Below, one piece after another: positions 36,901 to 50,936 of a stretch of 53,773 nucleotides of DNA. This DNA comes from Perkinsus marinus ATCC 50983 (lineage: Eukaryota > Perkinsozoa > Perkinsida > Perkinsidae). The stretch is taken from positions 124,505-178,277 of the forward strand of contig NW_003200605.1 in NCBI RefSeq assembly GCF_000006405.1, written 5' to 3'. Every line of letters starts with the position of its first letter. Position 1 is the stretch's first letter. Made by a program: the position numbers and the translations under genes. Below the pieces are notes generated by a model. That model ran no database searches. It worked only from the letters and a program-made list of their open reading frames with translations, and had not been told where the DNA came from.

Positions 36901-39135
36901 GGTATGTGTTGTATGGATCGGGGAGGTTGACCTTTGCAGAGGCATGTGTTGGAGCACCATGAAGTGTCTTATGAGGAGCTGTATGTGACACCATTGGGCC
37001 ACATTGCGGGACTGAGACCAGCTGATAGGTTCGGCTTAGGAGGAGCACTTGTTTGTATTCTGATTGGTGTATTAGGAGTCTTTGGCGCAACTTTGAGCTG
37101 CTCCGGGATGCTCTACAGGGAATGGAAGATATTCCTCTGGCGATCAAGGATGTGCGTCCAAGTGAGTATGGGATGGGATTCGAACCCGGGTTGTTCGAGT
37201 GAAAGGAGTGAATGCTTCCCAGGTGATCCAGCATTCAGCTACACGTCTATCGATCAAGAAGGCTCGAGTATATCCGGCCTCCTAGAGGTTGTCATCGAGT
37301 TGGAGTCGAATGCAGCTTGGCCGACCAAAGTAATTATGTGTTCGCGAGCTCGGTAACAGCGACATGATGCACGAACGTGCCCGAGTCGCTTTTCCAGTGG
37401 CTATCTGAAAAATTACGACCTTCACATGAACTGGCGATGAATTAGGAAATGTTGTTATATTATCTTATGAATTCACAGCGCAAGTCTGTGGAAATCCGAG
37501 AATGCAACCCCATGCGAGAAGGTGGCGGTTTGCAGAACGATCTTAAACACTGCGTTCACACAATTTTGAAAATAGTTATTTCATCTTGCGAGGAAGTCAG
37601 ACCGGCTCGAGTATGGGAATTTTCAACTTACTCGTGATTTGGCAGTGTTACGACTTATCCACTTTTCTTTGTCAGCCCCAGGCGATCATCGACACTAAAC
37701 TGGCCTTGCTGTTGAAGATTCAGGAGGGTTTGCTGGTGACGGAGGATTTCTCTGATGTCAATATATCGGCTACGGAAAATCCATCATGACGTACATGTAG
37801 AGTCGACGAGTACGTATCGATGCAGAATGTGGCACAGGGAAGAGTAGGTTGGAGGTGCGGGGATCGAACTTGGGTCTCCTGAATGTTGTGTTGACAGGTT
37901 GTCCAGCTGGCCACAGCTGCCACTACCACCACTCCAAGCAAGCAAAGGATGAGTGCGAAAATATTTGCTCGGAATTCGCATTGGATGCTCTCAGGTTGGG
38001 AGTACTTCTCTCCATTGCGAACTCTGTGGTACCAGCCGACCCATCGGAACTGGATTCACTCGATGACCGCTTTATATCCAGTAAGTGCCGGCTGTGGGAT
38101 TCGAACCTGCGGTCTCACGATAGTGCTTGTCAGTGTCTAGCGCCGGCTATTCGAGCAGCCAAGCGATGGTTGGACAAACGACTTCTACTCAAAGGAGTTG
38201 GCTTGGATAACTTCGCAGAGTTGAGCATGATGTAGAATTGAGGAAATGCAAGTTTCGGCTAGAAGAGCAAGATTTTCATCAGGCATGTGGTGGTGAGCCA
38301 AAATCCCCAATCTCCTCACACTGCAGTTCTGCTCTGGTTGAAGCTGATTGAAAATTGGCATTCCAGCGAACGGCCCATGTAAGGTCGCGGGTTCGAATCC
38401 CAGCGCTGCCCATTTTCATCGACCGACCTCAGTTACTTGCTGCAGTCGCTGACGCCCGGTGAGGAGAACGAGGAGGATAGTGAGGAGTCTGAACGTCTAT
38501 TAGAGAAACTGCAAGCTTGTTATGAAGCTGTTCCTATCTCGACCAGACCCAAGATGTGGATCAGCAGTCGCCTTGACCCGCATTGTCTCTTGGTGCGTAA
38601 AAATGCCTCTACCAGGATTCGAACCGGGGATCTCCCTTATCAGGTTCGTACTCCGAGCAATGCACTGTGTCAGCGAATGGCTTCTTTGGCTTCGGCTTCG
38701 CTCAAGCATGCATTAAGCGCTCGTTGGCATCGAATACTCAAACCCTTGCCGTCGGAGAACCTTTCCTCGCTGGATGTGGTTATCACACTGGTCCGAAATA
38801 AGGTTGACGCATCTCTACTACAGCAACAGTGCACTCGTCATTTTGGCTCGGCCGGAGTCTTCCTTTGTGGTGCTCGTGGGTCTATCATTGGTATCAAGTG
38901 GAGACCTGGTGCTAGTGTGGCCAGCAGGAAGCAGCTGGCCGGCGGGATGCAGCATTTGGCGGTTAGTGAAGATTTGGTGGTGCCCAACTATGCGTGGGTA
39001 TTGGAGAACGTTGTGAAGGGGATGTGTGGAGGAGTGGTGAAAAATGTCAAGATGCAGGGGGTAGGCTATACGATTGTTCCTGGCTTGATTGACTTATCAC
39101 TTGTGGCTGTTCAGGTCGGCAGTAATCTCCTATAA
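33912..39135 (+). CDS. NOL6: NOL6/Nrap/Utp22-type nucleolar protein
   Basis: Multi-exon. Start MPTPVVGPEAVAQAIVDNND at 33912, then SNLLRLQLEELLASTTPNWD (about 34295-34389), a block IMDGSKVELKIGYF near 34990, SYSKAVTLLKIWAYQRGFLY (35410-35515), LLGRALNNRMKSLAVRR (36480-36540), and SGELWGPKSELRRFKDGTML (36780-36835), the clearest family signature. Later come FELLRDALQGMEDIPLAIKD, VVIELESNAAWP, IRAAKRWLDKRLLLKG (38141-38232), MWISSRLDPHC, RMASLASASLKHAL, and the C-terminal block GVFLCGARGSIIGIKWRPG ... LVVPNYAWVLENV. NOL6/Utp22 is a catalytically dead nucleotidyltransferase-fold component of the small-subunit processome in rRNA maturation. At least six introns hold tRNA-like sequence, and one holds a MITE. 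The exact end (39072 or 39135) is open. Confidence 0.82.
34145..34282 (+). mobile_element. hAT-like MITE in a NOL6 intron
   Basis: Begins near CACAGTTTGAGAAAATATGC and ends AGCGAACATATATT. It is flanked by CGAATTCG (34137-34144) and CGAATTTG (34283-34290), a 7/8 duplication. About ten terminal bases at the right end are missing. Confidence 0.65.
35524..35600 (+). ncRNA. tRNA-like sequence in a NOL6 intron, sense
   Basis: A-box-like TGGTCTGGTGGTCAAG, then GTGGGTTCGATACCTGC, which pairs as a T arm. The acceptor stem partner (CACAGGT) is absent. Confidence 0.45.
37165..37245 (-). ncRNA. Antisense tRNA-like sequence at the 5' splice site of a NOL6 intron
   Basis: Minus strand: GTGTAGCTGAATGCTGGA (A-box-like) and CGGGTTCGAATCCCATCCC (B box). 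On the plus strand the intron opens GTGAGTATGGGATGGGATTC. Confidence 0.5.
37842..37915 (-). ncRNA. Antisense tRNA-like sequence in NOL6
   Basis: Minus strand AAGTTCGATCCCCGCACCTCC. On the plus strand it starts at a possible donor GTTGGAGGTGCGGGGATCGA. Only the 3' half is recognisable. Confidence 0.4.
38081..38140 (-). ncRNA. 60-nt NOL6 intron made of antisense tRNA 3' half
   Basis: The intron runs from GTAAGTGCCGGCTGTGGGAT to AGTGTCTAG. Splicing joins DDRFIS to TPAIRAAKRW. The minus strand reads GCAGGTTCGAATCCCACAGC then CGGCACTTAC, i.e. T arm, acceptor strand and a short tail. Confidence 0.6.
38365..38412 (+). ncRNA. tRNA-like sequence in NOL6, sense
   Basis: GTCGCGGGTTCGAATCCCAG followed by CGCTGCCCATTTT: B box, acceptor-like strand and pol III-type terminator. 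The 5' half is not recognisable. Confidence 0.5.
38593..38643 (-). ncRNA. 51-nt NOL6 intron made of antisense tRNA 3' half
   Basis: The intron GTGCGTAAAAATGCCTCTAC ... CCCTTATCAG is 51 nt. On the minus strand it reads CCCCGGTTCGAATCCTGG, TAGAGGCA and TTTTT (T arm, acceptor end, terminator) ending at the splice donor. It has no stop codon in the host frame, so retention would insert 17 residues. Confidence 0.6.
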
Positions 39136-49091: not shown

Positions 49092-50936
49092 ATGACCATC
49101 ATTCGTGCTCTGTCCTTGCCTCGGTCGGCGGTTATTGTGGGATATGCTCGAACTCCGATTGGCTCCTTTTTGGGGAGACTGTCGTCCTTCAAAGCACCTC
49201 AGCTGGGAGCCCATGTGAGTACCCGTTCAGAGAAGCTCGGATGGTATCTCAACTCTACCTAGGCGATCACAAGGGCCTTGGCTCAAGCTAAGGTCGATGT
49301 GGGTGAGGTGGATCAAGTGATTATGGGGCATGTATTGTCAGCTGCATGTGGACAGGTAGTACGGGACTGGGATAGTTATCGATACGTTCAGCAATGAGCA
49401 CGCTGATGCAGCCATTATGTGTGTAGGCACCAGCGCGTCAGGCTGCCTTAGCGGCTAAGTTGCCGTCGTCTACTAATGTGATGAGTGTGAATAAAGTGTG
49501 CAGTAGTGGCATGAAGGCCGTCTCTATGGCTGCGGCTTCGATCGCTATTGGAGAGGCGGACGTGGTAGGTCTTGGGGGTTTAGATATCTATGGAGGAGTG
49601 TGCAATGGTGGCAGATCGTCGCGGGAGGGATGGAGTCTATGAGTAATACGCCTCACGCACTAACGGAAGCTCGGAGTGGAGGATATAAGTAAGTACCCGA
49701 TGCAGGATTCGAACCTACGACCATCTGCTCCGTAGGCAGACATTCTATCCAGCTGAACTAATCGGGCGTTGTTTTTATCAGATATGGCCATGGTCAGCTA
49801 GTGGATCTTGTCCTGAGGGATGGTCTCTGGGATGTGTACAATGACATTCACATGGGCAAGTGTGCCGAGAAAACCGTCAAAGAGTTCGGCATCACTCGAG
49901 AGGAGCAAGTGCGGCCCCCCCATCGCCGAGTTTAATATTATATATCCCTACCTTCTCAGGATGACTATGCGATCCAATCCTATCAAAGGGCAGCGGCAGC
50001 CTGGAGTAGAGGGAAGATGAAGAACGAGGTAGGGTAGTCGGGGTTAATGATGCACTCCCCTCTACCCCGAGAGTATGGTGGTAGCAGCTGTGTTCTGATG
50101 TGCTTTAGGCATTTCCAGTCGAAGTACCTTCAACCGTCAAAGGCGGCGAACCTAAAATTTTTTACAGTGACGAGGAGTGAGTCCTCATCTGATGGCCGTT
50201 GTAGGAAGCAGGACTACTTCAGGTTCACAAATTTGAAAATCGAACGGGTAGCGGCCGTGAGACCAGCCTTTCTCAAGGACGGCACCATCACAGCCGCTAA
50301 TGCGTCCAAACTGAACGATGGCGCTGCGGCGCTGGTTGTTGTCAGTGAGGAGTTTTCCCGAGAGCAAGGCTTGACCCCATTGGCTCGGTAGAAGTAGCGC
50401 GCGCCCAGCTGATCGATTATATGAATGCCGTTCAGGATTATATCGTGGGCAGATTTCGAGCAGGACCCAATAGACTATTCCTTGTCACCAGCCGGAGCAG
50501 CGCGGGTGGCCCTGCAAAGAGCGGGGATGACGACGAAGTGAGTCGTGGACACTTCGGGGGGAGATTGATCGGAACGGTGGGAAGTAGAGGTTGAAGAACG
50601 ATCTATATTCGCAATATCGCTGTGTTTGAGTGAGGTCAGTCTTCCTCTATTCTGTTGTATGGTGAGGGATCTGTCAGGGACGTGGATGTGTGGGAGATCA
50701 ACGAGGCATTCTCTTCGGTGGCGATAGCTAATATGAGGTTATTGGAGCTGGACCCATCGAGAGTTAATGTAGATGGAGGAGCGGTTGCTCTCGGGCATCC
50801 CATAGGAGCCTCGGGAGCTCGCCTGGTGGGGACTCTCAGCAGAATTCTCGGTGAAAATGATTATACTGTTGGGTGCGCTACGATATGTAATGGTGGGGGA
50901 GGGGCTACGAGTGTGGTGATAGAGAGAATTCAGTGA
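49092..50936 (+). CDS. ACAT: Acetyl-CoA acetyltransferase (thiolase)
   Basis: Ten exons: 49092-49214, 49263-49355, 49427-49564, 49615-49688, 49782-49908, 49960-50028, 50109-50176, 50223-50387, 50436-50537, 50678-50936. Phases agree and the product is 405 aa, normal for the family. It starts [20 protein letters not shown] and continues [20 protein letters not shown]. The nucleophile Cys lies in [10 protein letters not shown], followed by [40 protein letters not shown] and [11 protein letters not shown]. The catalytic His and second Cys regions are [16 protein letters not shown] and [12 protein letters not shown]. It condenses two acetyl-CoA or cleaves acetoacetyl-CoA. No strong presequence is seen, so a cytosolic place is possible. 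Intron 4 (49689-49781) is an antisense tRNA-Arg gene. Confidence 0.96.
49694..49767 (-). tRNA. tRNA-Arg (anticodon ACG), antisense in thiolase intron 4
   Basis: 74 nt including the discriminator. Acceptor strands GCCCGAT and ATCGGGT pair over seven positions (one G-U). The D arm is TAGTTCAGCTGGATAGAATG. Anticodon stem TCTGC/GCAGA encloses loop CTACGGA, giving ACG. Variable loop is TGGTC, and the T arm GTAGG-TTCGAAT-CCTGC carries the B box. All arms form. The host intron is only 93 nt, so the tRNA fills four fifths of it. On its own strand no T run follows its 3' end closely (ACTTACTTATAT), so termination may be inefficient. Confidence 0.9.

What the first reader, a model, noticed from the sequence alone, without database searches (positions are those of the whole stretch)
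37165..49781. Spliceosomal introns built from antisense tRNA-like sequence
In NOL6, the DHHC gene, the COPI-associated-like gene, thiolase and AP1M, intron after intron contains a tRNA T arm/B box (GGTTCGAATCC). Most are antisense to the host with the acceptor end next to the 5' splice site. Donors read GTGCGTAAAAATGCC, GTGAGGAAAATGCCGGC, GTAAGTGCCGGC, GTGAGTATGGG, GTAAGTACCCGAT and GTATAGAAAGCATCC, i.e. GTR-, often an A run (complement of the pol III TTTT terminator), then the tRNA 3' end. Some introns are only 51 or 60 nt and consist of little else. At least 14 instances are seen in this window. This suggests a mechanism that creates introns from tRNA 3' halves or tRNA-derived SINEs. I know of no described equivalent.
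Basis: partly seen in the sequence, partly recalled or inferred. Interest (0 to 1): 0.88.

Follow-up and report, generated by a model that had tools for sequence, protein, structure and literature searches.

The report
tRNA-like module inside Perkinsus introns
In the oyster parasite Perkinsus, many very short introns consist largely of a sequence resembling the last part of a tRNA, in either orientation, which points to an undescribed tRNA-related source of introns whose origin is not yet proven.

Summary
The window is Perkinsus marinus. Protein-guided alignment of NOL6, thiolase and AP1M gives 48 introns. Eight contain a tRNA-3'-half-like module (AGGTCNCNGGTTCGAWYCCNGNNNNGGCATTTT, tRNA positions about 44-73 plus terminator); their exons contain none. 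GGTTCGAWYCC occurs 2127 times in the genome against 39 for the backwards control. Introns of 50-53 nt in DIB1 and a BRR2-like gene are mostly module. The thiolase intron is an intact antisense tRNA-Arg gene.

Beyond this window orientation is mixed (13 homology-supported introns: 7 antisense, 6 sense). No target-site duplication was found, T stems do not covary, and the 11 modules compared with a 95%-identical duplicate region are all shared. In two diverged DIB1 paralogs the module core differs at 2 of 29 sites, against 18 of 56 third codon positions: it is old and may be under selection, though the duplicate region supports this only weakly. Birth of introns from tRNAs is plausible but unshown. 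Best reading: an introner-like, tRNA-derived family. Two other motifs (GCGGAGCGAAGC; GCGCCACGAAATTA) also recur in introns.

The parts
38593..38643 (+). NOL6 intron, 51 nt, module antisense, donor GTGCGTAAAAATGCC
   Evidence: spliced alignment of P. olseni and P. marinus NOL6; module score 40.1
38379..38432 (+). NOL6 intron, 54 nt, module sense; the AGGTC of the module overlaps the donor GTAAGGTC
   Evidence: score 36.1
38081..38133 (+). NOL6 intron, 53 nt, module antisense
   Evidence: score 36.6
37844..37897 (+). NOL6 intron, 54 nt, module antisense (weaker; boundary from P. olseni; the P. marinus annotation starts this intron at 37736; an indel separates the donor regions of the two copies)
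   Evidence: score 18.4
37162..37222 (+). NOL6 intron, 61 nt, module antisense
   Evidence: score 22.8
35515..35598 (+). NOL6 intron, 84 nt, module sense near the acceptor, with an A-box-like word upstream
   Evidence: P. olseni protein only; score 21.6; A-box-like word
49689..49781 (+). thiolase intron, 93 nt, made of a complete antisense tRNA-Arg(ACG) gene (minus strand 49694-49767) plus about 20 nt
   Evidence: ARAGORN, Rfam 61.8 bits, spliced alignment with P0001; 40 genomic matches, 32 of them identical over 74 bases, itself included
21654..21850 (+). AP1M intron, 197 nt, module antisense with the B box 18 nt from the donor; also holds a GCGCCACGAAAT motif
   Evidence: spliced alignment of human AP1M1; score 30.7; motif
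47849..47900 (+). predicted 52-nt intron, module antisense
   Evidence: module score 40.8; intron by joined-frame scoring only
47693..47743 (+). predicted 51-nt intron, module sense, ending ATTTTGTGATTTAG
   Evidence: module score 42.7; intron by joined-frame scoring only
47105..47143 (-). module; host intron not resolved
   Evidence: score 27.8
50995..51033 (+). module just downstream of the thiolase coding region, so not every copy lies in a coding-region intron
   Evidence: score 33.2; thiolase alignment ends at 50933
31411..51040 (.). region with a 92-97% identical second copy on contig C69 (L001+L002), apart from stretches such as 40436-45342 that the copy lacks; 11 of 11 modules compared are present in both

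Best explanation
P. marinus carries thousands of copies of an introner-like, tRNA-derived module: variable loop, T arm/B box, acceptor 3' strand, discriminator A and oligo-T terminator. In introns of about 50-60 nt the module is most of the intron, in either orientation. Most often its tRNA 3' end faces a nearby splice site: the acceptor when sense (terminator T run plus YAG), the donor when antisense (GTRNGT, A run, then GCC). SHOWN: recurrence, excision at protein level, tRNA-like consensus, mixed orientation, age (shared by diverged paralogs). INFERRED: (1) the copies came by insertion of tRNA-derived sequence, most simply pol III transcripts with 5' truncation (from full tRNA, through copies that still have an A-box-like word, to the 3' part only); (2) many insertions founded the intron instead of landing in one; (3) the B box may since have been kept by selection, as a DNA-level site (for instance for TFIIIC) or a splicing aid, since it occurs in both orientations and the tRNA fold is not preserved.
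For: GGTTCGAWYCC 2127 vs 39 backwards; exact GGTTCGAATCC 433 vs 11. ACTYAC (donor complement) 4-24 nt past the B box: 61; GTRAGT in the same place: 2. 8 of 48 introns, 0 in their exons. DIB1 50-nt intron: joined peptide aligns ungapped across the junction to solved DIM1. BRR2-like gene: 53- and 52-nt introns likewise, and a 110-nt antisense one (E=6.9e-44). Module introns are as short as the others. Series from whole tRNA (thiolase; L004 predicted 102-nt intron) through A-box-bearing copies (10 of 67 vs about 1 expected) to the 3' part only. Age and possible constraint: DIB1 paralogs 2/29 module core vs 18/56 third positions, p=0.014.
Against: No in-register target-site duplication (158 matches vs 152 +/- 7.7 permuted, n=22). 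No T-stem covariation beyond permutation at 49-65, 50-64, 51-63. Acceptor strand not paired with upstream sequence more than shuffled. No empty site: 11 of 11 modules compared are in C69 too, two BRR2-like introns are shared by C13 and C79, and the DIB1 intron 1 module by both paralogs. Constraint is fragile: in the duplicate region modules differ at 17/429 sites vs 164/2235 other intron sites (p=0.009), but without the intact tRNA gene p=0.03, with the six NOL6 introns alone 11/234 and p=0.18, and for the B box without the tRNA p=0.08; modules were also found by their match in the window copy, which biases this downward. Abutting rule: 11 of 13 fit, nearly forced in introns of 61 nt or less (and 38379 has its B box nearer the donor); of five longer ones (84, 93, 110, 197, 479 nt) three fit. 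Of ten joined peptides sent to Pfam, six matched nothing and three only weakly. No RNA-seq was available.
Confidence: 0.5

Rival explanations
1. A selected cis motif, not an inserted element: B-box (extra-TFIIIC-like) or splicing-related sites are favoured in introns, and the tRNA likeness beyond the B box reflects an extended TFIIIC site.
For: DIB1 paralog conservation; no T-stem covariation; few decayed copies: below score 14 there is no excess over shuffles; both orientations; two unrelated motifs also recur in introns.
Against: AGGTC and GGCATTTT at tRNA spacing lie outside a B box; a complete tRNA forms one intron and some copies keep an A-box-like word; conservation in the duplicate region fades without the tRNA gene; thousands of independent origins of a roughly 39-nt match are implausible without copying.
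Confidence: 0.2
2. tRNA pseudogenes or tRNA-derived SINE debris landed in pre-existing introns because these are among the few tolerant places in a compact genome; introns later shrank.
For: The second DIB1 intron exists in both paralogs, but only the C15 copy carries a module (score 22.2 in a 479-nt intron); a module lies outside coding introns (50995); tRNA-Arg(ACG) has 40 matches in this genome and P. marinus is reported to have over 500 copies of five tRNA gene types (PMC3706591, passage); weak evidence of constraint.
Against: Module introns are not longer than others: an insert of about 40 nt in a 50-nt intron should give about 90; the DIB1 intron 1 module outlasted its surroundings.
Confidence: 0.23
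3. Chance or artefact (degenerate B-box matches, mis-called introns).
For: The 2-mismatch B-box count in this window alone is only modestly above shuffles (26 vs 15.6); one hit is, by eye, a coding coincidence (L018).
Against: Genome-wide counts, module scores, protein-level excision.
Confidence: 0.02

Closest known systems
Introners / introner-like elements (Micromonas, Aureococcus, fungi, Symbiodinium, Amoebophrya; PMC9860276, PMC7789003)
   Same: Related short sequences recur as introns of unrelated genes; element length is close to intron length; several families per genome; some known families lack TSDs and TIRs; splice sites lie at or just outside the element (PMC9860276 section 7).
   Different: Copies here share only a tRNA-like module and are more diverged; both orientations; no recent copies or empty sites seen. 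A search for Perkinsus with introner returned only the Amoebophrya paper.
tRNA genes and tRNA-derived SINEs
   Same: Extended B box, variable-loop AGGTC, discriminator A and oligo-T at the 3' end; one intron is a complete tRNA gene; 10 of 67 modules have an A-box-like word upstream.
   Different: Most copies have none; no acceptor pairing, no T-stem covariation; only one tRNA reported by Rfam in the window even at E up to 10.
ETC sites / extra TFIIIC B boxes (yeast; recalled, no call)
   Same: B box mostly without A box or tRNA fold.
   Different: Inside introns next to splice sites and followed by a terminator-like T run; TFIIIC binding untested.
Dada transposons targeting tRNA genes in P. 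marinus (PMC3706591, passages)
   Same: Same organism; many tRNA gene copies.
   Different: 4.7-11 kb DNA transposons inserted in tRNA genes; not reported there as introns in the passages seen.

Membership tests
Introner | Related sequence in many introns of unrelated genes at non-homologous positions | tested here: met
   8 of 48 introns in NOL6, thiolase and AP1M, plus DIB1 and a BRR2-like gene
Introner | Element coextensive with the intron | tested here: inconclusive
   introns of 50-61 nt are mostly a 39-nt module; introns of 84, 93, 110, 197 and 479 nt also hold one
Introner | High similarity between copies, recent spread, empty sites | tested here: not met
   listed pairs 77-83% over 39-47 nt outside one small subfamily at 78-87%; all compared copies shared in duplicates
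Introner | TSD or TIR (present in a part of the known families) | tested here: not met
   no excess in-register repeats in 22 introns; TIRs not tested
tRNA gene | full cloverleaf by ARAGORN or Rfam | tested here: not met
   only the thiolase-intron tRNA-Arg passes in the window
tRNA-derived SINE | A box plus B box head with a family-specific body or tail | tested here: inconclusive
   A-box-like word in 10 of 67 vs about 1 expected, by one loose pattern chosen after the fact; no family-wide body or tail; one small repeat subfamily with some shared flank (L010, L020, L026, L028)
ETC / TFIIIC site | TFIIIC occupancy without Pol III | not testable with these tools
   needs ChIP or binding data

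The most novel reading that the evidence does not exclude
tRNAs, as pol III transcripts or gene copies, have repeatedly been turned into spliceosomal introns in Perkinsus: whole or 5'-truncated tRNA sequence inserted in exons in both orientations, with terminator and 3' end beside the new splice site, and the B box perhaps kept by selection afterwards. A sizeable share of the introns would thus descend from tRNAs (8 of 48 here; roughly 4,000-11,000 modules genome-wide by two crude extrapolations from a non-random sample).
Probability: 0.35. Interest if true: 0.87.

Novelty: new variant of a known kind. Interest (0 to 1): 0.68.

Why it matters
Where introns come from is a long-standing question, and known introners are mostly consistent with DNA transposition (PMC9860276, abstract passage). 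A tRNA-derived source that works in both orientations would be a different route. A Pol III-type B box conserved inside Pol II introns, if confirmed, would be surprising in itself. Both are directly testable, since the protein records show that P. olseni, P. chesapeaki and P. marinus have been sequenced.

Tried and rejected
Rejected: chance. Intact tRNA structure in the modules: acceptor pairing and T-stem covariation both negative. Anticodon-loop cleavage as the 5' boundary: three antisense introns end CTTGTCAG or CTTATCAG like an anticodon loop read backwards, but the distance from intron end to B box varies about 18-36 nt (counted by eye), so dropped. TSD insertion: negative. Weak module traces in the remaining predicted short introns: none (0 of 97 above score 0). 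A home-made gene finder over-predicted at first; retuned it was insensitive: 8 of 121 predicted introns held a module, so protein-guided alignment replaced it. Pfam on ten joined peptides: DIM1 clear; Helicase_C, TPR_19 and Nrap_D5 weak, below cut-off; six without a family. A search for relatives of the L004 tRNA-like intron found only itself. Empty-site searches with joined exons of the BRR2-like gene and DIB1 found only copies that carry the intron. Literature: no held paper has introner, intron gain, tRNA-derived and SINE together; spliceosomal intron with tRNA-derived and intron gain gives one paper, on Alu and other elements (listing only); Perkinsus with introner gives only the Amoebophrya paper.
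Full report
WHAT THE WINDOW IS. The window is G000:C52:124505-178277 of a 54.46-Mb eukaryotic assembly. Its spliced NOL6 is identical to the P. marinus ATCC 50983 record over all 505 residues of that record, against 854 of 984 for P. olseni and 769 of 980 for P. chesapeaki, so the host is P. marinus. Published work reports P. marinus introns of 39 to 1622 bp, mostly under 100 bp (PMC3101222, passages).

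THE OBSERVATION. Aligning proteins to the DNA with introns allowed gives 25 introns in NOL6, 9 in thiolase and 14 in AP1M (human protein recalled from memory, so boundaries are less certain, and a 5-nt exon between two introns is doubtful). A 39-column profile of the module, built from the fetched loci with tRNA genes masked outside the window, scores 14 or more in 8 of these 48 introns, in none of their exons (5,479 bp) and at 10 further places in the window. In 240,170 bp outside the seed centres there are 48 such scores against none in five Markov shuffles. That gives about 200 per Mb, or about 11,000 genome-wide; a second extrapolation through the exact B-box count gives about 4,300. The sampled loci were chosen around B boxes and tRNA genes, so both are rough. 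One of the 48 is, by eye, a coincidence inside a DEAD-box helicase exon.

WHAT THE MODULE LOOKS LIKE. The conserved columns read AGGTC-NCN-GGTTCGAWYCC-NGN-NNNN-GGC-A-TTTT. With tRNA numbering (recalled) this is the variable loop (44-48), T arm, acceptor 3' strand, discriminator base and terminator. The NNNN positions are random. Little is conserved from -9 to -35. The T-stem outer pairs do not covary (32, 38 and 36 of 67 paired, equal to permutation), and the acceptor strand finds no partner upstream beyond shuffled. These are therefore tRNA-like as linear sequence, not folded tRNA halves. Further upstream, 10 of 67 modules have an A-box-like word at 25-70 nt against 1.1 expected (loose pattern, chosen late; it includes the intact tRNA-Arg, and the hit in L020 lies in an exon). 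The thiolase intron is a complete tRNA-Arg(ACG) gene in antisense with 40 genomic matches, 32 of them identical over 74 bases, itself included. A predicted 102-nt intron in L004 looks like a complete but decayed tRNA in sense; by its anticodon loop I read it as Pro-like, which no call tested.

EXCISION. No RNA-seq was available. The evidence is continuity of the encoded proteins. P. olseni NOL6 reads straight through all six junctions where the window has modules. P. marinus does so at four of the five it covers and starts the intron of the fifth (37844) upstream, at 37736. P. chesapeaki, read by eye, is continuous at the five from 37162 on. In L023 the DIB1 peptide joined across a 50-nt intron aligns ungapped to solved DIM1 (Pfam DIM1 E=1.6e-31). 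In L020 the peptide joined across 53- and 52-nt introns aligns ungapped at both junctions to BRR2/ASCC3 helicases, with one gap elsewhere, and that across a 110-nt intron aligns ungapped to BRR2 over 64 residues. Of 13 homology-supported module introns (8 in the window, 3 in the BRR2-like gene, 2 in DIB1), 7 are antisense and 6 sense; in the looser list of 22 used for the TSD test it is 13 to 9. In 11 of the 13 the tRNA 3' end faces a splice site within about 35 nt of the B box: the donor if antisense, the acceptor if sense. In introns of 61 nt or less this is almost forced; among the five longer ones (84, 93, 110, 197, 479 nt) three fit. Genome-wide, the reverse complement of a GTRAGT donor follows the B box within 4-24 nt 61 times, the donor itself 2 times. 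A naive uniform expectation is about 22 (my arithmetic from the 2127 B boxes), and a few of the 61 are tRNA genes or repeats.

ORIGIN. For insertion that founded introns: module introns are as short as others (median 57.5 vs 54 nt, Mann-Whitney p=0.42), both orientations occur, and there is a series from whole tRNA to 3' part. Against recent spread: no TSD, 11 of 11 modules compared are also in the 92-97% identical C69 duplicate, and no empty site for two genes. The two DIB1 paralogs are telling: identical protein over 56 residues, 18 of 56 third positions changed, second intron 479 vs 92 nt with a module (score 22.2) in only one, yet the module core in the first intron differs at 2 of 29 sites (4 of 34 with the tail) and the B box at none (Fisher p=0.014, 0.042 and 0.029). 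In the C52/C69 duplicate, modules differ at 17 of 429 sites, other intron sequence at 164 of 2235 (p=0.009), B boxes at 3 of 121 (p=0.04). But without the intact tRNA gene these become p=0.03 and p=0.08, and for the six NOL6 modules alone 11 of 234, p=0.18; modules were also ascertained in the window copy. I conclude that the module is old, possibly constrained, that it most likely entered by copying of tRNA-derived sequence, and that intron birth is the simplest but unproven reading.

CONTEXT. Two unrelated motifs recur in introns of the same genome: GCGGAGCGAAGC (917 genome-wide vs 1 backwards) and GCGCCACGAAATTA (351 vs 0). With one mismatch allowed their 11-12-nt cores are in 5 and 3 of the 48 introns and 0 of 45 internal exons (one of the 5, in NOL6, is a one-mismatch hit that may be chance). 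P. marinus introns may therefore hold several introner-like families, of which the tRNA-like one is the most readable.

PAPERS. Seen: passages of PMC3706591, PMC7789003 and PMC3101222; passages and section 7 of PMC9860276; otherwise search listings with the starts of abstracts. ETC sites and TFIIIC are recalled and come from no call.

Noticed in passing
window 22405, 23046, 23308, 23723, 48004; 917 places genome-wide: Motif GCGGAGCGAAG(C) recurs in introns in both orientations (4 AP1M introns, several predicted ones in L020); 917 vs 1 for the backwards control.
   Followed up: partly
AP1M introns 21654-21850, 23164-23208, 23578-23624; 351 places genome-wide: A second intron-associated motif, about GTCACGCGCCACGAAATTA; GCGCCACGAAATTA 351 vs 0.
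   Followed up: partly
window about 40436-45342: A 4.9-kb stretch absent from the C69 duplicate, with a sequence repeated near both of its ends (about 40430 and 45000) and tandem repeats at about 40880-41500 (by eye): looks like a mobile element.
   Followed up: no
L008 (C282), L009 (C9): Tandem arrays of mostly alternating tRNA-Cys and tRNA-Arg genes, 29 and 11 genes found by ARAGORN.
   Followed up: no
L035 (C9:91000-91700): Three 188-bp tandem units, each with a tRNA-Leu-like sequence followed closely by a donor-like GTAAGT on the other strand.
   Followed up: no
L004:3470-3800: Three modules about 145 nt apart, possibly successive introns of one gene.
   Followed up: partly
L018:6340-6362: Exact GGTTCGAACCC inside what reads by eye as a DEAD-box helicase exon (DRMLDMGFEPQ): a coding coincidence, a warning for B-box counts.
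   Followed up: partly
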